Shown: positions 28,134 to 37,618 of the stretch, piece after piece | How the letters are laid out: the number at the start of each line of letters is the position of its first letter | Numbering within the stretch: position 1 is the first letter of the stretch | NCBI GenBank assembly: GCA_029881805.1 | Contig: JAOULW010000003.1 | Span: forward strand, 120,664-184,663 | Source: Candidatus Bathyarchaeota archaeon | GTDB lineage: Archaea > Thermoproteota > Bathyarchaeia > Bathyarchaeales > Bathycorpusculaceae | Length of the DNA: 64,000 nucleotides | Reading direction: 5' to 3' | Position numbers and translations under genes: made by a program | Notes under the pieces: model-generated | What the model saw: the letters and a program-made list of their open reading frames with translations, nothing else | The model's database searches: none | What the model was told of the DNA's origin: nothing

Positions 28134-28790
28134 ATGCGAAGCAAAGTATGGACTACACGAGGAAGACCCGCCGGCTGGCACCACTCATACTATGACATGC
28201 GGCTTCTCGAGTATCTCGCTAGAGCTTCACTGAAACACGGAATTGACTCAGACAAATTTTTTAGTAGTTTTCTTGATGCTTTTGAACATGAAGAAGCTAC
28301 GTGTGGAGAACTATCGATTAAATGCCGAGTAAAGACACGAGATTACGCAATCTTTCTCATAACCAGTGGTCCTAAAGTGGTTGCACAATTTCATATACCT
28401 ACGCACATTCTTGCAAAAGCTAATCCACTCAAAGAGTTTACGTATAGACTATTGTCTATAAGAAACCCAGCCCAAGAGGCTAAATCAAAACACCCTCAGA
28501 TTAAAGATTTAAGGGTTGGAATGAAACGCATTAACATAAAGGCAAGGGTTCTCGAAGTATCTCAACCAAGGCTCGTCGCAACCCGTTTTGGTTTCTACGC
28601 TAATGTGGCAAACGTCCTCGTTACTGACGAAACTGGAACCATCCAATTGCCTTTATGGAACAAACAAATAGATGAAATTTCTACGGGTGACCTCATTCAA
28701 ATTGAAAAAGCAAATGTTATTGTATTTAGAGGTGTACGTCAGTTAAAGGTCGGCAGAGGCGGAAAAGTGAGCGTCATCAAAAATAATTAG
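28134..28790 (+). CDS. OB-fold single-stranded nucleic acid-binding protein (RPA-like)
   Basis: 218 aa. The C-terminal half is an RPA-type OB-fold: IKDLRVGMKRINIKARVLEVSQ, ANVLVTDETGTIQLPLWN, GDLIQIEKANV and FRGVRQLKVGRGG. The N-terminal 115 residues resemble a second, unassigned domain. A role in ssDNA binding is inferred. It starts 13 bases after the alba relic. Confidence 0.75.
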   Translation: MRSKVWTTRGRPAGWHHSYYDMRLLEYLARASLKHGIDSDKFFSSFLDAFEHEEATCGELSIKCRVKTRDYAIFLITSGPKVVAQFHIPTHILAKANPLKEFTYRLLSIRNPAQEAKSKHPQIKDLRVGMKRINIKARVLEVSQPRLVATRFGFYANVANVLVTDETGTIQLPLWNKQIDEISTGDLIQIEKANVIVFRGVRQLKVGRGGKVSVIKNN

Positions 28791-29003
28791 TGCGTCAGTA
28801 TTGATGCATGTTTCGCGTAATCCTCAGCTTTTTCGTCTGTGCCTTGCGTTCCTTGCGTCTTTCGCTTCTATTTTTCGCCAGTCCCTCTTTCTCTGAGTCA
28901 CTATGGTATCTCTGGACCAAGCATAGTGTTTGGAACTATTTCCTGGGTGTTGACCCATTTTTTCGTAAAAGGTTGAATAGTTTATCTCTTGGTTTGAGAG
29001 TGA

Positions 29004-29171
29004 CTATATGATTTCATTCCACTTTGTCTCGGTCTCTTGTGAGGCGGTTTTGTCCCATGAGCGAGAATAGGCGGGATAGGCTACGTGGAATTTAAACTCA
29101 GATGACCTGTCGATCATTAGTTTGGTTGCTGCTGCTGGTTCTTTGGCTTGTCGTTCTGGTTTTTGTGCCAT
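29004..29171 (-). CDS. Very small hypothetical protein (55 aa)
   Basis: ATG 29171, stop 29004-29006. It begins MAQKPERQAKEPAAATKLM and continues with an aromatic-rich part (SSEFKFHVAYPAYSRSWDK). No family recognised; composition is protein-like and the frame is clean. Confidence 0.5.
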   Translation of the reverse strand: MAQKPERQAKEPAAATKLMIDRSSEFKFHVAYPAYSRSWDKTASQETETKWNEII

Positions 29172-29277
29172 AATACTCTATGCCCGAAGATTTTGTAACT
29201 AATAGTATGCAAAGCAACGTATGAATGTTCTAAGGCGATCGTGCAAATCCTTGTTTAGAGCTTTTCTACAGTCGTTT

Positions 29278-29436
29278 TCATTTCCTCATAAGTTTTTGAT
29301 GTTTCTTCCAGTATGTGAGGTACATTGAGCACTTCATTTTATCCTTGCAATTTTTACATTCAGAGCGGAGGCTCGTCCAATACCTTTGGCAAGGCAGATT
29401 GGTTGGTGGAGGAGTCTTCGCGACGTGAGTTGACAT
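29278..29436 (-). CDS. Very small cysteine-rich protein (52 aa)
   Basis: ATG 29436, TGA 29278-29280. It contains LPCQRYW, then CKNCKDKMKC and a basic C-terminal helix (YLTYWKKHQKLMRK). Four cysteines could form one zinc site. A TATA-like CTTATATCC lies about 45 bases upstream on the minus strand. Confidence 0.55.
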   Translation of the reverse strand: MSTHVAKTPPPTNLPCQRYWTSLRSECKNCKDKMKCSMYLTYWKKHQKLMRK

Positions 29437-29512
29437 CTTGGACAACCTCTAGTTTAGAGACCTTAGTAGCATAAGTGGATATAAGCTTAGTTATAAAGTC
29501 AAGCTCGCGCGT

Positions 29513-29626
29513 ATGGTGTACCTGTATGGTGGCTACACGCGACTAATGTCATTGTTAGCATTATCCCTTACAATTGCGATCATCATGTACGAACGTAGAA
29601 TACAAAATATGATCGTGCCGGGCTGA
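29513..29626 (+). CDS. Possible single-helix membrane peptide (37 aa)
   Basis: ATG 29513, about 27 bases after a TATA-like GGATATAAGC (29477-29486), which fits a leaderless transcript. It has one hydrophobic segment (LMSLLALSLTIAIIM) and a basic tail. Weak evidence only. Confidence 0.3.
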   Translation: MVYLYGGYTRLMSLLALSLTIAIIMYERRIQNMIVPG

Positions 29627-29772
29627 AGTGCTTGTCAGAACTACCTGTTCTGATAATTCATCTGCGCATGTATTGACAGGAAAGAAACATTGAGGGATTC
29701 TATCGAATTGGTTATAGGTGTCCCGTGTTCTATTGGGTGTGCCTCTAGAACGAAACAAGGAGAGGAAAATAA

Positions 29773-29856
29773 ATGAGATATACACTTGAAGAGGAAGAAC
29801 CAGAAAAACCAGAAGAGGAAGGATTTGAAGAGACGAATGGTGACATTCTCTCATAA
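29773..29856 (+). CDS. Possible acidic micro-protein (27 aa)
   Basis: ATG 29773 preceded by AGAGGA. The product is glutamate-rich (TLEEEEPEKPEEEGFEE). Composition is extreme; it may be a real micro-protein or a remnant. Confidence 0.3.
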   Translation: MRYTLEEEEPEKPEEEGFEETNGDILS

Positions 29857-29991
29857 ATTCTTCTTACCCTTTTTTGTCTGTTTAGATCAACTATATTTGG
29901 GCAAATTTTGGATGATGTGCTAAGATAACAAGTGCATACGAAATTATATATGTAGAAATCGCTGATAATTGTAGATTTTGAGGTCGCAATC

Positions 29992-30048
29992 ATGCCTAAA
30001 AGTGCAACTGGAAAGAAGAAAAAAGGAAGTAAAAAGAAAACGAAATAG
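29992..30048 (+). CDS. Possible basic micro-protein (18 aa)
   Basis: ATG 29992 with GAGGT seven bases upstream and a TATA-like AAATTATATATG at 29941-29952. It reads MPKSATGKKKKGSKKKTK. Such lysine tails can also be chance; promoter plus ribosome-binding site are the only support. Confidence 0.35.
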   Translation: MPKSATGKKKKGSKKKTK

Positions 30049-30080
30049 AGAGCTAACAACGATAGGTTACTCTCCCTTTT

Positions 30081-30143
30081 TCTCACATTTTCGGGGCGTC
30101 TTTGCATTGGAGCAGGCGATACTTTTGTGAAGCCGCTGAAAGC
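30081..30143 (+). repeat. Repeat R, copy 1 (63 bp)
   Basis: Matches 36386-36448 at 53 of 63 positions with no gaps, most differences being transitions. Conserved core GAAGCCGCTGAAAGC at the 3' end. Copy 2 lies just after tfb. It could be a duplicated non-coding RNA, a 3'-flank relic or a duplication scar. Confidence 0.7.
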
Positions 30144-30218
30144 ACCCGTGTTGCTTAGTTTAGGTTCACTGCTACAACTGTGTTCTTAGAATGCGCGTGA
30201 GCAGATTTGAGGCGTAAA

Positions 30219-30357
30219 TTATTTAACGAACTTCTTTGGATGACGTTTGAGTTTTCTCTTGCAACTCGCGGAGCAGAAGTAGTATTTCTCTCCTTCAAAG
30301 TTTATCCTGAAATTTGCTTTTTCCGTCAAGCACAGCGCCGCACACAGGATCTTTCAA
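30219..30357 (-). pseudogene. YHS-domain protein, frameshifted
   Basis: TTG at 30357 starts MKDPVCGAVLDGK, the classic opening of YHS metal-binding proteins. The remainder, INFEGEKYYFCSASCKRKL to PKKFVK, follows in another frame. The switch lies at the run GGAAAAAGC (about 30317-30321); one A fewer would join the halves into a normal protein of about 46 residues. It is either a recent pseudogene or a sequencing slip. Confidence 0.75.
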
Positions 30358-30460
30358 TCAATGACCCCACATTCTCTGATGAAGGTACAATATAAGATAG
30401 AATGGTTTCAGCAATGCTTGGCAAATGCGCGGATGGAATAATTCTCTAACATTTCAACGC

Positions 30461-30740
30461 TCACAGAACTTTTTTCTGTTCAATTTTTCGGGTCAGGATC
30501 TCAACGATCCGGTCGTTGTTGAGGTACATCATTGGGTTGTTGCAGGCGGGACATTTAAAGAGAAGCTCAAATGCCTCTTCGAAAGGGAATCGCTTGCAGC
30601 CTAGCGTTTGGCAGCTGTAAAACTCGTGGCTTTTCTCGTATTCAACCCGGATTTCCAGTTTTTCAAGAACACGGCGCTTTTGGTTTAGGATAAAGCCTTC
30701 CAGTTGGTCTGGTTGGAGTCTCCAGTTGAAGATAAACCAG
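30461..30740 (-). pseudogene. tfe: tfe, C-terminal part cut off by the integrated element
   Basis: Coding for the C-terminal half of transcription factor E (TFIIE-alpha homologue). It reads WFIFNWRLQPDQLEGF at the attachment site, a coiled segment KRRVLEKLEIRVEYEK, and the zinc ribbon FYSCQTLGCKRFPFEEAF ... FKCPACNNPM. It has no start codon of its own: the 5' part lies 4 kb away beyond the right repeat. TFE normally opens promoter DNA together with TBP and TFB. Confidence 0.85.
30725..30740 (+). repeat. Left attachment site, attL (16 bp)
   Basis: GTTGAAGATAAACCAG, identical to 34778-34793. On the minus strand it encodes WFIFN of TFE in one frame and GLSS plus part of the next codon of the integrase in another. 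Confidence 0.9.
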
Positions 30741-30831
30741 TCGTTATCCTTAGTATTTTTTCTTGTTTTTGTGTGTCTGTTGCCATGGGATTTGTGGCGA
30801 TACCGTGTGTTTCTTGCTTTGGGTTTTCCAT
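30725..30831 (-). CDS. Integrase, N-terminal piece (int-N)
   Basis: ATG 30831 begins MENPKQETHGIATNP and the frame runs through the attachment site. In the integrated state it continues into tfe sequence in the wrong frame and stops after about 17 residues. In the excised circle it joins the right-end piece to give a 351-aa tyrosine recombinase. Its promoter stays here, so the chromosomal copy cannot be expressed whole, as in SSV1-type integrases. Confidence 0.85.
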
Positions 30832-30865
30832 TTTTGTTTTCCTCTTGTAGTAATAGGGTGGCTTA

Positions 30866-30875
30866 GTATTTAAGC
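30866..30875 (-). promoter_or_regulatory. TATA box of the integrase
   Basis: GCTTAAATAC on the minus strand, 35-44 bases before the int ATG, giving a leaderless or nearly leaderless transcript. Confidence 0.6.
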
Positions 30876-30969
30876 GTTTACCGTGTATTTTGATAATTTG
30901 GCTTCTTGCGGAAGTTTTATATGTTAATTTTGTCTAATACGGTGTGTGGTTGTGCGGGGGCGTTTGAAT

Positions 30970-31116
30970 ATGTCTAAGATTCGGTTGTTTATTAAAGTTC
31001 GTAAGCAAGGTTCTCGTATTGATTCTGTTCCTTTGAAGCAGTTGATTAAATTGTCTGCTTATAAAAAGAGGCGTTGGGAGTTTAAGGATGGTTGGCTTAT
31101 TCTTGAAGCGTTCTAG
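30970..31116 (+). CDS. Small basic element protein (48 aa)
   Basis: ATG 30970, TAG 31114-31116, preceded by a TATA-like GTTTTATATG at 30914-30923. The product starts MSKIRLFIKVRKQGSRID and ends GWLILEAF. Basic, beta-like; possibly DNA-binding. Codons are T/G-rich like the rest of the element. Confidence 0.6.
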   Translation: MSKIRLFIKVRKQGSRIDSVPLKQLIKLSAYKKRRWEFKDGWLILEAF

Positions 31117-31196
31117 GTTACTACTACTTTTTCATTATATAGTTTGTCTGTCGTAGGTTATGGTTGATTGACTTTATCGTAAAAGGGGGAGATATT

Positions 31197-31349
31197 GTGA
31201 CTAAAAGTAAAAAGTCTCTGCGATTGTGTCCTGTTAAGAGTAAAGAGGTTGTTTGTGATGGTTTCTGCAATGTTGTCTTTGATAACAATGTGGTTCATAT
31301 TTGCTCTGTGCGTAGAAAGGCTCTTGATGTGACTCTAAATCATCGTTAG
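31197..31349 (+). CDS. Small cysteine-containing element protein (50 aa)
   Basis: GTG 31197 chosen because GGGGGAG lies a few bases upstream; a longer frame from 31164 lacks a ribosome-binding site. It contains LCPVKSKEVVCDGFC and a later Cys, a possible zinc site. Function unknown. Confidence 0.55.
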   Translation: MTKSKKSLRLCPVKSKEVVCDGFCNVVFDNNVVHICSVRRKALDVTLNHR

Positions 31350-31744
31350 ATGGTGTATTCATTAATTTCTAATTCATTCATCATACCTATTCATATTTGG
31401 TGTCTTTATATCTGAAAAGAGGAGAATGAAATGAAGGCAATGTCCTGCGGTTCAACAAAATAGCGTTGAGCATTTCATTCGGATATTTTTACTGCGGTTA
31501 CGCCTTTCATAAGATAGATTAAGAAGATTTATATGGAACTTGTGCTGTTGTTATTGTGATGGTTGAAGTGTATTTTCTCGGATAAATAGGCGTGAACGTC
31601 TCGGAATGATGAGGTGCAGAAACTCATCAGCTGTAGGTTTTCACTACGGCAACACGTGGGTTGGCAAAAATCGTGTTTCCCAGTGGTTTGTACATTTTTT
31701 CTCTACCGTATCAATTTTTAAGGTGGTTGTGGTTGGGATGATTT
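31350..31744 (+). other. Non-coding region of the element, candidate replication origin
   Basis: 395 bases without a gene. A perfect 7-bp hairpin TGATGAG/CTCATCA (31607-31613 with 31623-31629, 9-nt loop) lies upstream of rep. A TATA-like GATTTATATGG (31528-31538) probably drives the Cys-rich gene and rep through a long leader that includes the hairpin. Rolling-circle origins often sit in such hairpins next to rep; the assignment here is inference. Confidence 0.45.
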
Positions 31745-32110
31745 TTGAGTTCTGATAAGATAGGGCGTTGCGTCTTTTCTGATGACGTATTGTGCTCTTT
31801 TCGTAAAACTAAGGGGTCTTACGTAATGGATAGGTGTTTTAAGTGTTCTCATTATAAGAGGTTTGAGCGTGGGATGGAGAAGGAAGACGAAGAGTTTTGG
31901 GCTGAAGTTGATGAGATTTATAGGAAGGAAGGTCTTTCCTGTTTGTGTGACCATAAGCCATGTGATAATGAGGTGCGTGGTTCTTGTTTTTCAAGTAGCA
32001 CTAATGGGGTTTTGCTTTGGGTGTGTCCACGTTTTGACGTTGGTTGCTTTCGTGATGGGGCGATGATTAAGGTAATGTTTGAGAGTTTGCGTAAGGGGGG
32101 TTTGGTTTGA
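31745..32110 (+). CDS. Cysteine-rich element protein
   Basis: 121 aa, TTG start. Twelve cysteines spread in pairs (CFKC, CLCDHKPC, and singles) suggest zinc binding. Its stop overlaps the TTG start of rep, so the two are translationally coupled; a helper of replication or a regulator is plausible. Not recognised. Confidence 0.65.
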   Translation: MSSDKIGRCVFSDDVLCSFRKTKGSYVMDRCFKCSHYKRFERGMEKEDEEFWAEVDEIYRKEGLSCLCDHKPCDNEVRGSCFSSSTNGVLLWVCPRFDVGCFRDGAMIKVMFESLRKGGLV

Positions 32111-33117
32111 CTCCGTCTGTTGAGGCTGTAAATAGGAGTTTTGCTGAGCGTGTGAGTTTGAATAGGCAAATTTTAGCGAAGAGGTATTGGTATTTGCCTG
32201 TTGATGATAAGGGGCATGAAAATTATCAGCCTGTTGGTCGTGGGGTGAGGAGTTCGGAATTTTGCGGTGTGTCAAGGGGTTTTACGGTTTGTAAGAATGT
32301 TGCGGGTCATGAGGGTAAGATTTTGAATGGTGTGGATTGTTCGGGTAAGGTGGTTGTTCGTCATCGGCATTTTTGGTGTCATAAACCTACGTGTCCTGTG
32401 TGTTTTATTCGTGGTTGGAGTGTTAGAGAAGCTCGTAGTATTGAAGGTCGGTTTCTTGCGGGTAAGAAACGTGGTTTTGATAAGGTTGAGCATATTACGG
32501 GGTCTGTTGCTGTTGCTGACCGTGAGTTACCAGAGTCGGTTTTTAGAAAGAAGTGTCGGGATGCTTTAAAAGACCGTGGAGTTTTGGGTGGGTGTATGGT
32601 TTTTCACGGTTATCGTATTGATGAAGAGCGTCAAGTTTTGGTTTGGAGTCCGCATTATCATGTTCTTGGTTATGTAGAGGGTGGTTTTGACCGTTGTCGT
32701 GATTGTAGGCATAAGCGTGAGGATTGTCGTTCTTGCAGTGGTCTTAAAGGTCGTGAAGTGAGGGGTTTTGCGAATGATGGTTATCTAGTAAAGGTTCATG
32801 ATGTTCGCAAGACTGTTTTTGGTACTGCGTGGTATGAGCTTAATCATGCGACTGTTAGGGTTGGTGTTAAACGCTTCCATTGTGTCACGTGGTGGGGAAA
32901 TTGTGGTAATCGTAAGTTTGAGAGTGTGAAGTTGGACATTGAGGTTTTGTGTCCTGTGTGTAGCGAAGAGATGGTTAGGTCTGTTTATGTTGGTAAGCGT
33001 TTCATTGTAAGAGATATTGGTGTTGATGGGTATTTACCTGTGTTTGCAGATGATGAGTTCGATGGGGTTGGTGTGGCTAATTACGTTGATGTGGTCGGTG
33101 GTAGTGGGTCGGGGTAG
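32107..33117 (+). CDS. HUH-family rolling-circle replication initiator (Rep)
   Basis: 336 aa. The metal-binding HUH motif is H183-Y-H185 in WSPHYHVLGYVEG. A downstream tyrosine in GTAWYELNHATV (Y243) is the best candidate nicking residue. Additional cysteine clusters (CHKPTCPVC at 91-99, CRDCRHKREDCRSC at 197-210, CPVC at 282-285) probably bind zinc, as in archaeal plasmid Reps. TTG start at 32107 overlaps the upstream stop (TTGA). Bases 33118-33338 downstream are non-coding. Confidence 0.85.
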   Translation: MTPSVEAVNRSFAERVSLNRQILAKRYWYLPVDDKGHENYQPVGRGVRSSEFCGVSRGFTVCKNVAGHEGKILNGVDCSGKVVVRHRHFWCHKPTCPVCFIRGWSVREARSIEGRFLAGKKRGFDKVEHITGSVAVADRELPESVFRKKCRDALKDRGVLGGCMVFHGYRIDEERQVLVWSPHYHVLGYVEGGFDRCRDCRHKREDCRSCSGLKGREVRGFANDGYLVKVHDVRKTVFGTAWYELNHATVRVGVKRFHCVTWWGNCGNRKFESVKLDIEVLCPVCSEEMVRSVYVGKRFIVRDIGVDGYLPVFADDEFDGVGVANYVDVVGGSGSG

Positions 33118-33338
33118 CGGTGAGCATAGACCTTTGGGTGATGTTGTAGTCTTGCTGTTGCTGTGTCTTCTGGAACGTTGCAGAAGTAAGGCGAACGCCT
33201 TACGTCTCAAGGTGGTTTGAATTTTAGAAATGAGTTTTTTAGAGTTGTTTGTTGCTGTTGCTTGTTTTGGTTTTTGACGTTATTTGTATTTATTTGATTT
33301 TGAAAAGATAGATAGACGCAAAAATGAAGCAAATAGAA

Positions 33339-33548
33339 TTATCGTTTTGAACGTCTTTTATCTATTTCATTGTAGAGAGCGTATAAGAGGAATGCTAGAG
33401 CAAGAACAAAATAGGCTATCCATATGGTGTTGTTCGAAGCAAACAATGAATCGACAACTAATTTTACAATAATTGCAAGAATAAACGTTCCAACAATAGT
33501 TAGCGACCAATAGAGCCATTTTAATTCCTCTTTTCTTCTTCTTGACAA
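33339..33548 (-). CDS. Small two-helix membrane protein of the element
   Basis: 69 aa from TTG 33548, chosen because AAGAAGGGA lies just upstream and the upstream gene ends there. It starts LSRRRKEELKWLYWSL, with two hydrophobic helices (SLTIVGTFILAIIVKLVV and WIAYFVLALAFLLYALY) and a basic tail. Confidence 0.6.
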   Translation of the reverse strand: MSRRRKEELKWLYWSLTIVGTFILAIIVKLVVDSLFASNNTIWIAYFVLALAFLLYALYNEIDKRRSKR

Positions 33549-33550
33549 TG

Positions 33551-33727
33551 CTATTCCCTTCTTAATATTCCAAGAATCATTCCAATCACGATTAATACTA
33601 TGGCAATAACGAAAACGACTGCTAAGACTGGTGATAGTTGCATGAACACTAAAAAGAATACGTATCCTAACAGGCATATGACGAACAATCCAATGATTGC
33701 TTCAATAATTTTGTCAATCTCTGACAT
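33551..33727 (-). CDS. Small membrane protein of the element
   Basis: 58 aa from ATG 33727 (AAGGA just upstream); ATG 33751 would add eight residues. It begins MSEIDKIIEAIIG and is almost entirely two hydrophobic helices, ending GILRRE. It is paired with the next gene, separated by two bases. Confidence 0.6.
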   Translation of the reverse strand: MSEIDKIIEAIIGLFVICLLGYVFFLVFMQLSPVLAVVFVIAIVLIVIGMILGILRRE

Positions 33728-33828
33728 CAATTCCTTATTATCTCCTCTCATGAATCATAATCTGTTTTGAATTATTAGTTTTTCTGTCCTACGAAAGGTT
33801 TAATGCCAGTTTGATTCAAAAAAGGGAG

Positions 33829-34793
33829 TTATTTGCGTATTCGGAAGTATTGGTATCCGTCTGCTTCGGTGAATTTTTCGTATCCTGCGTCTGATAATTC
33901 CATGATTTGTTTTAGTGTTTCGGGAGTTCCTAATTGTATGGCTTTGGTTGTGTATTCTTCGGGTTCGTCTAGGTTTATTGTTCTGATGTAGTAAAGTGTA
34001 GTCTCTAAGCATTTGTGTCTCATGAATCGCATGGTTGCGATTGGGTCGTGTTTGCCTGTTGTTTTGTAGAAAATTGCTCCTGCGTAGTTTCGTAGGTTTT
34101 TTAGTAGCACGGTTTTTAGTTCTGGTTTGGATAGTTTGCGGGATGCTTTGGTTCGTGTGGCTCTCCAGTTTTCACCCATTGTTTTTGGGTTTGGAAATGG
34201 GTATTCTTCGTTTGGGTGTTTTGATAGGTAGTTGCGGAGCATGTTGGCGGTTTGTGGTTTCAATTTAAAGATTCTGTTAGCGTGTCCTTTTATTCCTATT
34301 ATGCTTATTGTTCCCTGTTCTTTGTCTATTTGGGTTATAGCTGTTCGGTGTAGTTCTGCGGGTTCTACTGCGGTTTCGGTCATTATTTTGAATAGACAAG
34401 TATATTTTAGTGATGCTGAGTTTATTATTTCGTTGACGTTTTCAGTTGTTGGTATTATCGGAATTGGCGGTTGGTATCGGATTTTGGGTTTGTCGTAGGG
34501 TATTTGGTTTGCTTCGCAGAATATATCGTAGGTGTCTATGTATCTTTTAATGTAGCCTTTGGATAGTGTTTTGCCGTGTTCACCTTTCATTTTTAGGATG
34601 TAGAGGTTTGTTTCTGTTGAGTTGAAAAGGTCGGTTTTGTTGGCTAGTCTTCTTAAGAGTCTTTCGTGTTCTTTTGGTTGTCTGTTTCTACTTTCAAGAG
34701 TTTTTAGAGTTTGTTTGATGGCTGTTTCTATTCTTGTTTGTGGTAAAAACTTGGTGGGTTCACTTAAAGTTTGGGTGGTTGAAGATAAACCAG
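33829..34793 (-). CDS. Integrase, C-terminal piece (int-C), tyrosine recombinase
   Basis: Open on the minus strand from the attachment site without any ATG, GTG or TTG before the internal ATG at 34590, because the start lies at the other end of the element. The catalytic domain is clear: IKGHANRIFKL (box II lysine), LLKNLRNYAGAIFY (Arg), MRFMRHKCLETTLYYIRT (His and the nucleophilic Tyr, about 299 of the rejoined 351). The usual box I Arg (TGxRxxEL) reads TAVEPAEL, and the HxxR histidine reads K, so activity is doubtful. Confidence 0.85.
34778..34793 (+). repeat. Right attachment site, attR (16 bp)
   Basis: GTTGAAGATAAACCAG, identical to attL. To its right the minus strand reads RDKETGWFIFN in the TFE frame. 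Confidence 0.9.
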
Positions 34794-34867
34794 CCTGTTT
34801 CTTTGTCGCGGGACCGCCTGAGAGCAGCGCGAAAATATCCTCGGGATGCTCTGTTGTTTAATCGCGT
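34778..34867 (-). pseudogene. tfe: tfe, remnant on the right side of the element
   Basis: About 30 codons in the TFE frame ending YFRAALRRSRDKETGWFIFN at the repeat. RDKETGW is the typical end of the TFE winged-helix domain. Joined across the repeat it continues into WRLQPDQ at 30461-30740. A stop at 34868-34870 and absence of further matches show that most of the winged-helix domain is missing here, so the target was truncated before or after integration. Confidence 0.75.
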
Positions 34868-34975
34868 TTATAAGGAAGTTTGCGTAATATGGGGCAGTAG
34901 CGTTCTGTTGTTGAAGGAAAGAAAGAAAACAGCAACGTTACACGTTACAATCAATGATGAAAGGAGTGATGGAAA

Positions 34976-35263
34976 ATGGCTGAAAAATCGGGAATTGTTT
35001 TCATTGGAAGTAAACCAGTAATGAACTATGTTCTAGCGATTATCACAAGCCTATCGGCATCCAATGCTAAGGAAATAACATTGAAAGCCCGAGGACAAGC
35101 GATCACCACGGCAGTTGATGTAGCTGAAATAACCAGAAATCGCTTCCTAAAAGACCTAAAAATAAGCAAAATCGCGATAGGAACAGAGGAGATGCCACCG
35201 AGAGAAGGCGAAAACAGAGCACGGATGGTCTCAACAATGGAAATAACCCTTACAAAAGAGTAG
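34976..35263 (+). CDS. albA: Alba chromatin protein
   Basis: 95-aa DNA/RNA-binding chromatin protein with the typical core: IGSKPVMNYVLAIITSL, ARGQAITTAVDVAEI, RNRFLKDL and IGTEEMPP. Lys in the SKPVMNY loop is the position that is acetylated in Sulfolobus Alba. A TATA box TTTATAAG lies at 34867-34874. AAAGGAGTGATGG lies upstream of the ATG. Confidence 0.94.
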   Translation: MAEKSGIVFIGSKPVMNYVLAIITSLSASNAKEITLKARGQAITTAVDVAEITRNRFLKDLKISKIAIGTEEMPPREGENRARMVSTMEITLTKE

Positions 35264-35359
35264 GAAAACCCTGCCGAACAAAGCATCAACCGGTAATATC
35301 CTCCTTCCTAGCGCGCGCAGCGGACTAACAATCAGATCGCTCAAATTCTGATACGTAAT

Positions 35360-36370
35360 ATGAGGAATTGCGTTTTGCGAAGGTATCCTGTTATGAGTAT
35401 ACTCCACATGACAGAGACAGAAAAAATGGAAAAAAGAAAGAAGGTGGCACGGTCTCAGCAAACGTTGCGAGATAAGTGTCCGGAATGCGGTAGTGGAAAC
35501 CTTATCCATGATTATGATACTGGTGAGACTGTCTGCGGCGACTGCGGACTCGTCTTATACGGGCAAATTATGGATAAAGGACCAGAATGGCGCGCCTTCA
35601 CCCAAGAAGAAAAAGCCTCAAGAAGCCGCGTTGGGATGCCAACATCTTATTCTGCCCATGACAAAGGCTTGTCAACAGCCATAAGCCAAATTGACCGCGA
35701 CGCCTTTGGAAGAAAACTTCCATTATCAACGCGCCTGCAGATGTGGCGCCTGAGGAAATGGCAGATCCGTTCTAGGGTGCATTCTTCAGTTGACAGAAAC
35801 CTCGCCCAGGCAATGGCTGAGCTTGACCGCCTCTCAGACAAGGCCTACATCCCACGACCAATCAAAGAGAAGGCTGCGGTCATCTACCGTAAAGCCTTAG
35901 ATAAGAGCCTAGTCCGCGGAAGGTCTATCGCAGCCATAACGGCTGCTGCGGTTTATGCGGCTTGCCGCGGAAGTGGGACCCCAAGAGCACTTCATGAAAT
36001 CGCAGAGGCAAGTCTAGTCGATAAAAAGGACGTCGCCCGTTGCTACCGACTTTTGCTACGTGAACTTGATATGCACATGCCCATCGCTGACCCCCTCACG
36101 TACGTTTCGAAAATCGCTGAAAGAACAGGAATTTCGGGCAAGACGCAGGGAATTGCTATACAGATTCTTCGAGAAGCTAGAAAGAAGTGGGCTGCTGCCG
36201 GAAAGGATCCTACGGGATTGGCTGCTGCAGCACTGTACATTGCTTGTTTGCAGAACAACGAGAAGAAGACACAGAAGGACATCGCCGAAGCAGCAGGCGT
36301 CACTGAGGTCACGGTGAGAAACCGCTATAAGACCATGAAAAGGCAGCTGAAGCTAGAATTACCGGACTAG
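35360..36370 (+). CDS. tfb: Transcription initiation factor B (TFB)
   Basis: 336 aa. N-terminal zinc ribbon C40, C43, C59, C62; B-reader region PEWRAF; then two cyclin-like repeats (about residues 145-230 and 240-335) ending in a recognition helix (AEAAGVTEVTVRNRYK). It recruits RNA polymerase to TBP-bound promoters. Start uncertain: ATG 35360, or 35393, which would drop 11 residues. Confidence 0.95.
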   Translation: MRNCVLRRYPVMSILHMTETEKMEKRKKVARSQQTLRDKCPECGSGNLIHDYDTGETVCGDCGLVLYGQIMDKGPEWRAFTQEEKASRSRVGMPTSYSAHDKGLSTAISQIDRDAFGRKLPLSTRLQMWRLRKWQIRSRVHSSVDRNLAQAMAELDRLSDKAYIPRPIKEKAAVIYRKALDKSLVRGRSIAAITAAAVYAACRGSGTPRALHEIAEASLVDKKDVARCYRLLLRELDMHMPIADPLTYVSKIAERTGISGKTQGIAIQILREARKKWAAAGKDPTGLAAAALYIACLQNNEKKTQKDIAEAAGVTEVTVRNRYKTMKRQLKLELPD

Positions 36371-36385
36371 TCATCTTTGCTTTCT

Positions 36386-36448
36386 TCTCAAATTTTCAGG
36401 ATGCCTTTACGTTGGAGCAGGTGATGCTTTGGTGAAGCCGCTGAAAGC
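36386..36448 (+). repeat. Repeat R, copy 2 (63 bp)
   Basis: Starts 16 bases after the tfb stop; see copy 1 at 30081-30143 (53 of 63 identical). It contains GGTGATGC and GCTGAAAGC, loosely like C and D boxes of guide RNAs, but the boxes are not canonical. Confidence 0.7.
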
Positions 36449-36538
36449 CCAAAGGGGATTGTGTGGGAAACCTCTACCTCTTGAATCTAAGGCTTTATAA
36501 TAGGTGTTTAAAGGCTTCACTATAAGAAGTGGTGTTTC

Positions 36539-36760
36539 ATGCGCGCGCTTTATTCTATATTATTCTATATAATCGAAAGACGTGTTTTAAAAATAGATGA
36601 ACAAGAGCTTTTGAAAAGGTTAGAAGAGATTGAAAAATGGGAGAATGAGGGTGCAAAATTGACGCCTTATGCCTTTCTCCACTCACATCGGCTTTTCTTG
36701 CGACTTCTTCTGCCTTTTTTTGGGCCGTATTCGGTGTACCTAAATAATCTTCTTGCTTAG
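36539..36760 (+). CDS. Possible small protein (73 aa)
   Basis: ATG 36539 lies about 40 bases after a TATA box (GCTTTATAATA, 36491-36501). The central stretch (LKIDEQELLKRLEEIEKWEN) is a convincing charged helix; both ends are less so. Its 3' end overlaps the convergent zinc-ribbon gene by 21 bases. Confidence 0.4.
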   Translation: MRALYSILFYIIERRVLKIDEQELLKRLEEIEKWENEGAKLTPYAFLHSHRLFLRLLLPFFGPYSVYLNNLLA

Positions 36761-36910
36761 TACTTCTCGGAAGGACTTCTTGCACTTTGGACAGTCGAAA
36801 AGGCCGATTTCCAACTGAGTTCTTTTTCCAGCTTTGGATGGGCGTCCAGCCATCGTCCACTTCTTCTTAGGCGATGAAACCACTGTTCCACATTTTTTAC
36901 ATTTAGCCAT
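36740..36910 (-). CDS. Small zinc-ribbon protein (56 aa)
   Basis: ATG 36910. It reads MAKCKKCGTVVSSPKKKW, then MAGRPSKAGKRTQLEIG and a second knuckle FDCPKCKKSFREV: one zinc ribbon with a basic AT-hook-like GRPSK segment between. Probably a nucleic-acid-associated protein. It lies among basal transcription genes. Confidence 0.75.
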   Translation of the reverse strand: MAKCKKCGTVVSSPKKKWTMAGRPSKAGKRTQLEIGLFDCPKCKKSFREVLSKKII

Positions 36911-37057
36911 TTAATTTCCTCCAATATATCTTGATAACCATGGTCTATGATGATGATAGATAAAACACTTTCCACTGTTTTCGGATACAAGTGCGTTCTA
37001 CTTTACTACGATGAGGAATGTACAAACGAAGGCGATAGACGATTAACGTATGAAGCT

Positions 37058-37618
37058 TTATTCGTAGAATATGAGATCTTGTTCCTCCAAGCTTCGGTGA
37101 AGCTTATGCACTGCGTCATAAACGTCCTGTTCTTTCTTCGCTCCAGTGCAAACAAGGTTCCCGCTTGCGAATATAAGTATGACCACCTTAGGCTCGGCCA
37201 TCCTGTAGATCAATCCTGGAAACTGCTCCGGCTCATACATGGTTTTTTCAAGCGCGCCCACTGCTTGTTCCAACTCTATTCTTCCGCCTAAGCTTGCGGA
37301 GGCAACGATGTTCTGAATCTTTAACTCCGGCTTGCTGATAATGATTATTCCACCCTTTTTCAACTCTTTAACAACGTTCATAACAGCCCTACGTGCTTCC
37401 TTTTCCGATTTCGCTCCCGTGCAAACCATTTTCCCAGAATTGAAAATCAGCGTGGCTGTCTTCGGTCTCTTAATCCTAAACACTAGTCCAGGAAACTGTT
37501 CAGGACGATACTCAACTCCTGGATTACTCTTCACGACAGCGTTTAAGTCAACTTTCTGGTTTAACGTGGCAGAAGCAACAACGTTTTGAATTTTTATTAT
37601 GGCTTTAGTCTTCGGCAT
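37058..37618 (-). CDS. tbp: TATA-box-binding protein (TBP)
   Basis: 186-aa saddle protein with two pseudo-repeats: IKIQNVVASATL ... PEQFPGLVFRI ... MVCTGAKSE and IQNIVASASL ... PEQFPGLIYRM ... LVCTGAKKE. It binds archaeal TATA boxes and recruits TFB, which is encoded nearby. Confidence 0.96.
   Translation of the reverse strand: MPKTKAIIKIQNVVASATLNQKVDLNAVVKSNPGVEYRPEQFPGLVFRIKRPKTATLIFNSGKMVCTGAKSEKEARRAVMNVVKELKKGGIIIISKPELKIQNIVASASLGGRIELEQAVGALEKTMYEPEQFPGLIYRMAEPKVVILIFASGNLVCTGAKKEQDVYDAVHKLHRSLEEQDLIFYE

What the first reader, a model, noticed from the sequence alone, without database searches (positions are those of the whole stretch)
30725..34793. A rolling-circle element that splits its own integrase and sits inside the gene for transcription factor E
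Identical 16-bp repeats (30725-30740 and 34778-34793) bound a 4.05-kb unit with Rep, small proteins and a tyrosine integrase. The integrase right-end piece has no start codon. Its missing start, with a well-placed TATA box, is found at the left end, and joining the ends across the repeat gives one 351-codon frame. Outside the repeats, the same 16 bases are read in another frame as WFIFN of TFE: RDKETGWFIFN on the right continues to WRLQPDQ and the TFE zinc ribbon on the left. Inactivation of the integrase by integration is known from SSV1-type viruses, but those target tRNA genes. Use of a basal transcription factor gene by a HUH-Rep element is, to my knowledge, unusual or undescribed.
Basis: partly seen in the sequence, partly recalled or inferred. 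Interest (0 to 1): 0.95.

Follow-up and report, generated by a model that had tools for sequence, protein, structure and literature searches.

The report
Self-splitting plasmid in transcription-factor gene
In a likely bathyarchaeal genome, a 4-kb DNA unit, likely a small plasmid, sits inside the remains of a second gene for transcription factor TFE that a relative carries uninterrupted, and pieces that look like the two halves of the unit's own integrase gene lie at its two ends, so its insertion likely cut both genes.

Summary
The 16-bp repeats and the 4.05-kb unit are real. The decisive test passed: relative G040 has the same tfe gene without the unit, contiguous across one copy of the 16 bases. 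That 16-mer occurs exactly in only 3 places in 300 genomes: the two repeats and G040's gene. The integrase start piece at the left end reads the core in the same frame as the catalytic piece, and a related element has a similar start piece beside its core.

Three corrections. (1) The target is a second paralogue, tfe2; a complete TFE lies elsewhere in the genome. (2) On the right only 34778-34825 is tfe2: the winged-helix half is missing and an alba gene lies there, so excision would not restore tfe2. (3) The integrase is XerA-like (PF00589 in 40 of 42 relatives, PF16795 in none), with Glu or Ser where XerA has Arg.

Of 16 related loci, 9 lie at tRNA genes, 2 at RNase P RNA, 2 in protein genes, 3 are unassigned. 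It is a self-splitting integrase family with an unusual target; protein-gene targets as such are known in thaumarchaea (PMC6563490). No circular form was seen.

The parts
30461..30740 (-). 3' part of tfe2 (92 codons plus stop, core included), cut off from its 5' part; no start codon giving a frame of 40 aa or more
   Evidence: 87.5% DNA identity to intact tfe2 region of G040; no Pfam match for this piece alone
30725..30740 (.). left copy of the 16-bp att core
30741..30831 (-). Int(N): start piece of the integrase, ATG at 30831, reading outward through the core
   Evidence: DNA 30749-30833 matches L102 beside its own core, E 4e-5, and the peptide does at E 0.002
30841..30874 (-). purine-rich ribosome-binding-like AAGAGG and TATA-like CTTAAATA upstream of Int(N), judged by eye
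   Evidence: sequence printed; the region around the start codon is 82% identical to L113 (30805-30847); promoter function untested
30946..31116 (+). 56-aa protein of unknown function, conserved in related elements
   Evidence: 68-73% identity in L102, L113, L119
31745..32110 (+). 121-aa Cys-rich protein of unknown function (start not certain)
   Evidence: matches in L102, L103, L104, L105; weak or no Pfam match
32107..33117 (+). Rep-like protein, 336 aa, with HxH (H183, H185) and Y243 invariant in 30 sequences
   Evidence: no Pfam, PHROGs, NCBIfam or PDB match
33339..33677 (-). 112-aa protein, probably membrane-bound by its hydrophobic stretches (by eye)
   Evidence: sub-threshold Pfam matches only
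33551..33751 (-). 66-aa hydrophobic protein; overlaps the previous frame, so at most one start is sure
   Evidence: sub-threshold Pfam matches only
33829..34793 (-). Int(C): catalytic piece of the tyrosine integrase, open from the core to the stop, first start codon at 34590
34778..34793 (.). right copy of the 16-bp att core
34778..34825 (-). remaining 5'-side stretch of tfe2 (48 bp, core included)
   Evidence: 95.8% identical to G040 over 48 bp; similarity stops at 34825
34976..35263 (+). alba gene lying where G040 has the tfe2 promoter and winged-helix part
   Evidence: Alba PF01918, NCBIfam AlbA; comparison with G040

Best explanation
A 4.05-kb unit at 30725-34793, likely a small Rep plasmid, lies inside the remains of tfe2, a second TFE gene, and most likely entered by recombination between a 16-bp core within its own integrase gene and the same 16 bases of tfe2, which would have cut both genes. 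Shown: the repeat, the empty site in G040, two open integrase pieces that read the core in one frame, related elements with similar ends at other targets, and a complete TFE elsewhere in the genome. Inferred: in a circular form Int(N), core and Int(C) make one integrase of 351 codons. Inferred: after integration Int(C) has no start before residue 68 of its 320 codons, which would remove three predicted N-terminal helices, so the copy should be locked in place unless an integrase of another element acts on it. Inferred: tfe2 is dead, since it is split, its 3' piece lacks a usable start and its winged-helix half is missing. The element looks chimeric: Rep, the 56-aa protein and Int(N) resemble L102 (at tRNA-Arg), while Int(C) resembles elements at tRNA-Pro and tRNA-Gly. 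Exchange of integrase pieces between elements is the likely, untested way in which it acquired the tfe2 target.
For: Empty site in G040: L007 1504-1551 matches 34825-34778 and 1536-2385 matches 30740-29889, overlapping in the 16-bp core. Exact 16-mer in 3 places in 300 genomes. Int(N) and Int(C) read the core in the same frame in the window and in 5 of 8 relatives with a usable repeat. Int(N) similarity to L102 beside its own core. Related integrases sit at tRNA genes, RNase P RNA and protein genes with cores of 15-28 bp. Chimerism. Complete TFE elsewhere. Int fold.
Against: No circular form or joined homologue was found: 0 true cases in the 120 listed of 186 database relatives, and no match in viral contigs for the junction. 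In L112, L116 and L117 the two frames disagree. At the inner junction of the tandem pair in L113, where pieces of two copies are physically joined, the frame is not open: it stops just after the core. L109 agrees in frame but its start piece shows no ATG in the 60 codons read. The family lacks the conserved Arg of XerA, so activity cannot be taken for granted. The missing 5' half of tfe2 is not explained by a simple integration.
Confidence: 0.85

Rival explanations
1. tfe2 had already lost its 5' half, by a deletion or replacement next to alba, and the element entered a pseudogene, so that no working gene was interrupted.
For: The 5' half is missing and an alba gene lies there. On the window branch, computed by hand with G125 as outgroup, dN is about 0.029 and dS about 0.044, against 0.013 and 0.179 on the G040 branch: a hint of relaxed selection.
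Against: The 92-codon 3' piece has no stop or frameshift and the counts behind dN and dS are small (8.5 and 10.5 differences between window and G040). The loss could equally have followed integration. The order cannot be told from one genome.
Confidence: 0.35
2. The apparent Int(N) is an unrelated small frame, and the integrase is an ordinary one that starts at or after the core and stays whole, as in pNOB8-type elements.
For: No joined homologue seen. The left piece is only 30 codons. Frames disagree in 3 of 9 elements.
Against: The left piece resembles the piece beside the core of L102, ends in a motif seen beside several other cores, and Int(C) has no start codon until its third predicted helix has passed.
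Confidence: 0.1
3. Mis-assembly: a separate plasmid contig was joined into tfe2 at a chance repeat.
For: The host assembly is in 39 contigs, and 16-mer pairs at 1-20 kb arise by chance at a mean of 0.47 per window-sized control.
Against: The right flank keeps 32 bp of tfe2 beyond the core before it diverges; both flanks belong to one conserved TFB-tfe2 locus; the exact 16-mer in the other 299 genomes searched is found only in tfe2 of G040.
Confidence: 0.05

Closest known systems
SSV-type (suicidal) archaeal integrases: SSV1, pTN3, pT26-2 (PMC8371274: passages and sections 6, 18, 31 seen)
   Same: att core inside the integrase gene; integration splits the gene into Int(N) and Int(C); exchange of the pieces proposed as the source of new specificities.
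   Different: The review ties them to PF16795 and to one origin, and describes tRNA targets. This family matches PF00589 in 40 of 42 members and PF16795 in none, is nearest to XerA in fold, and this member sits in a protein gene.
Integrated elements of Thaumarchaeota in protein-coding genes (PMC6563490: passages and section 8 seen)
   Same: Short att sites (13 bp in one example) in protein genes, verified by empty sites.
   Different: Those lie in 3'-distal regions, with the frame reconstituted in the example given; here the insertion is internal and separates the two domains. TFE is not among the genes named in section 8.
pNOB8-type archaeal integrases (PMC8371274 section 6 and PMC3293823 passages seen)
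   Same: Tyrosine integrases of archaeal plasmids beside tRNA genes.
   Different: Their integrase gene stays whole after integration; here the catalytic piece has no start near the core.
XerA chromosome-dimer recombinase
   Same: Nearest solved fold (5hxy, E 3e-9) and sequence relation.
   Different: NCBIfam XerA score 50.9 against a cut-off of 220; Glu or Ser in place of the Arg of XerA.

Membership tests
Suicidal (SSV-type) integrase elements | att core inside the integrase gene, which is split on integration | tested here: met
   Pieces at both ends with the core read in one frame, Int(N) similar to L102; met by anatomy, circular form not seen
Suicidal (SSV-type) integrase elements | Phage_integr_3 domain (PF16795), named in PMC8371274 | tested here: not met
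   0 of 42 members match it at E 0.01 or below; 40 of 42 match PF00589
Suicidal (SSV-type) integrase elements | integration into a tRNA gene (usual, not strictly defining) | tested here: not met
   This element lies in tfe2; no tRNA gene of the window lies near it; 9 of 16 related loci do lie at tRNA genes
pNOB8-type integrase elements | integrase gene intact after integration | tested here: not met
   No start codon before residue 68 of the open frame
Tyrosine recombinase family | catalytic Tyr with conserved Lys, Arg and His | tested here: met
   K168, K231, R234, H259 and Y268 in 42 of 42; PF00589; fold
Tyrosine recombinase family | first catalytic Arg (GLR-x-SEL motif of XerA; its catalytic role is recalled, not from a call) | tested here: not met
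   Glu in 40 and Ser in 2 of 42 at the aligned place
HUH rolling-circle Rep | HUH motif, catalytic Tyr and HUH fold | tested here: inconclusive
   Invariant H183-x-H185 and Y243; no significant family, sequence or fold match; model mean pLDDT 71.7
TFE (TFIIE alpha) | winged helix (PF02002) followed by zinc ribbon | tested here: not met
   Window copy: winged-helix half absent, 92-aa piece without Pfam match. The intact orthologue in G040 has PF02002

The most novel reading that the evidence does not exclude
A second, independently evolved lineage of self-splitting archaeal integrases: XerA-like enzymes with Glu in place of the catalytic Arg, carried by small Rep plasmids of Bathyarchaeia, which swap Int(N), att core and Int(C) pieces and thereby move between conserved genes of the information machinery (tRNA, RNase P RNA, a TFE paralogue) and other protein genes.
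Probability: 0.5. Interest if true: 0.75.

Novelty: new variant of a known kind. Interest (0 to 1): 0.6.

Why it matters
PMC8371274 describes self-disrupting integrases as exclusively archaeal, of a single origin, tied to PF16795. A XerA-like lineage with the same habit would show that it can arise more than once. Its members use tRNA, RNase P RNA and protein genes with cores of 15-28 bp, a natural series for asking how an enzyme changes target when the target is written into its own gene. The insertion also marks a neighbourhood of TBP, TFB, TFE2, Alba and an SSB-like gene, possibly an alternative set of initiation factors, in which TFE2 has been lost in this host.

Tried and rejected

Rows left out: L107 from the frame count, because its repeat has no Int(N) motif beside it; the 14-bp repeat of L106, which does not lie at a start piece; 7 of 17 integrase copies had no repeat of 14 bp or more. 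The TFE tree used 32 rows (the best-scoring loci, G125's second copy and the window piece), not all matches.

Paper searches on TFE paralogues, RNase P RNA targets, Bathyarchaeia plasmids and elements, SSV-type and suicidal integrases, thaumarchaeal elements and the missing Arg listed no paper that by title or abstract start reports this target or family; three papers were opened. Most subscription papers are not held.
Full report
Observation. The 16-bp repeat GTTGAAGATAAACCAG lies at 30725-30740 and 34778-34793 and nowhere else in the host genome, whose contig C16 holds the window. As a bare repeat it is not remarkable: 30 first-order Markov sequences made from the window give a mean of 0.47 16-mer pairs at 1-20 kb spacing, maximum 3; the window itself has the att pair and one other repeat of 17 bp. 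The case rests on the empty site.

Empty site. Relative G040 (same family, another genus) carries a TFE gene whose DNA matches 34825-34778 and then 30740-29889 of the window, the two matches overlapping in the 16 bases of the core. Among 300 genomes the exact 16-mer was found in 3 places: the two copies in the window and this gene in G040; with one mismatch allowed, 54 of 300 genomes have a match. G125 has the tfe2 core with one base different. The unit is therefore an insertion into a gene that is contiguous elsewhere.

The gene. It is not the only TFE. The host has a complete TFE of 190 aa at C13:245-817 with PF02002; the window fragment is 63% identical to it. In a tree of 32 TFE rows the window piece groups with G040, G125, G131 and G062, support 100/100; I call this clade tfe2. 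It mixes two families (f1 and f6), which suggests horizontal transfer (inference). G040 tfe2 has 1,784 database matches, of which the 120 listed are 77-99% identical. In the window tfe2 has also lost its 5' half: similarity ends at 34825 and resumes at 35332 just upstream of TFB; between them lies an alba gene, where G040 has the tfe2 promoter and winged-helix part. The tfe2 3' piece has no start giving a frame of 40 aa or more. Whether the 5' half was lost before or after integration is open; small-number dN and dS values hint at relaxed selection on the window branch (branch values by hand).

The integrase. Int(C) is open for 320 codons upstream of its stop at 33829, and its first start codon is at 34590, residue 68. 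It matches PF00589, and NCBIfam XerA below that model's cut-off. In the model (mean pLDDT 91.1) residues 1-15, which the core and its neighbour encode, are of low confidence, and helices begin at residue 17. The nearest PDB fold is XerA, 5hxy, E 3e-9. Int(N), 30741-30831, reads MENPKQETHGIATNPMATDTQKQEKILRITT and then the core. L102 has MTTPNTETQGKTTNPMDNQEETKQKILRVLT beside its own core, a similarity that blastn and tblastn also report (E 4e-5 and 0.002). For nine elements with a usable repeat, the window included, I compared the frames in which the two pieces read the core: they agree in 6 (window, L102, L104, L105, L109, L113) and not in 3 (L112, L116, L117); L109's piece shows no ATG in the 60 codons read. 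One third is expected by chance, so this is support, not proof. Against it, the inner junction of the L113 tandem pair is not open: it stops just after the core. Several start pieces end in a motif close to LLR-x-x-T/A-G, and cores tend to begin with nGGT (by eye). None of the 120 listed of 186 database relatives shows that motif joined to Int(C), as would be expected if they are integrated copies, but no circular form was seen.

Targets of the family. Twenty regions were fetched; 18 were chosen for Int or Rep, and 16 of these hold an integrase of this family by tblastn. Nine have a tRNA gene beside the start of Int(C): L102, L106, L107, L108, L110, L111, L113, L114, L116. In L104 and L117 the core lies at the 3' end of RNase P RNA. 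Two lie in protein genes: L105 splits an MFS transporter, and the core of L109 covers the start codon of a DegT-type aminotransferase. L112 (tRNA-like by eye), L115 and L118 (both near contig ends) are unassigned. L113 holds two elements in tandem.

Chimerism. Window DNA matches L102 in Int(N), the 56-aa gene, the Cys-rich gene and rep, but not in Int(C), which matches L107, L110, L106 and L109 best. By protein, Int(C) is 28.5% identical to that of L102 and 45.5% to that of L107. PMC8371274 describes a model in which exchange of Int(N) and Int(C) between integrated relatives makes new specificities (section 31); this element fits it.

Catalytic residues. In 42 aligned relatives Lys168, Lys231, Arg234, His259 and Tyr268 are invariant, but the place of the Arg in XerA's GLRVSEL is Glu in 40 and Ser in 2. 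What takes over its role is unknown; Arg213 and Arg258 are invariant too. That this Arg is the first catalytic Arg is recalled, not from a call.

Rep. The 336-aa protein has 411 database relatives and matches in 25 of 300 genomes. H183, H185 and Y243 are invariant in 30 aligned sequences. Pfam, PHROGs and NCBIfam gave no family above cut-off, and phage, plasmid and PDB searches no match. The model is middling (mean pLDDT 71.7). Rolling-circle replication is plausible but unproven.

Host. Named relatives of the integrase and Rep are Candidatus Bathyarchaeota (P0016), so the host is likely a bathyarchaeon.

Literature. PMC8371274 (passages; sections 6, 18, 31) calls self-disrupting integrases exclusively archaeal, links them to PF16795 and a single origin, and stresses tRNA targets. 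PMC6563490 (passages; section 8) reports 14 of 68 thaumarchaeal elements in 3'-distal parts of protein genes; section 8 does not name TFE. PMC3293823 (passages) concerns insertion at a tRNA gene. My searches listed no TFE target and no such Bathyarchaeia family; the library lacks most subscription papers.

Verdict. A correctly located integrative element with what is most likely a self-splitting integrase, in a TFE paralogue that has also lost its 5' half: a new variant of a known kind.

Noticed in passing
window 28134-37618; L120, L126, L127: Genes for an SSB-like protein (28134-28790), tfe2, alba (34976-35263), TFB (35360-36370) and TBP (37058-37618) lie together, although the host has another TBP (C12), two more TFBs (C10, C34) and a complete TFE (C13). 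Relatives keep parts of this set beside tfe2: TFB, Alba and SSB in G040; TBP and SSB in G131 and G062; none of them within the 19 kb fetched from G125. Possibly an alternative set of initiation factors.
   Followed up: partly
Int(C), residue 143 (window about 34363-34365): The place of XerA's conserved Arg is Glu in 40 and Ser in 2 of 42 relatives.
   Followed up: partly
L104 10103-10124; L117 8749-8767: Two related elements use the 3' end of the RNase P RNA gene as att site.
   Followed up: yes
L113: Two related elements in tandem, about 5 kb apart, beside an intron-containing tRNA-Gln gene; at the inner junction the integrase frame stops just after the core.
   Followed up: partly
L105; L109: A related element splits an MFS transporter gene, and another covers the start codon of a DegT-type aminotransferase gene.
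   Followed up: partly
G000:C14:8746-9744 (L103); G000:C5:70304-70963 (L118): The host has a second Rep (63% identical), and a related integrase with one internal stop near a contig end.
   Followed up: no
window 34826-35331; G000 C8, C10, C16: alba-like DNA occurs at five places in the host genome, this one included, the others 67-77% identical to it.
   Followed up: no
window 30127-30143 and 36432-36448: A 17-bp direct repeat flanks the stretch from downstream of tfe2 to downstream of TFB; related DNA lies downstream of tfe2 in G040 (L120 2654-2718).
   Followed up: no
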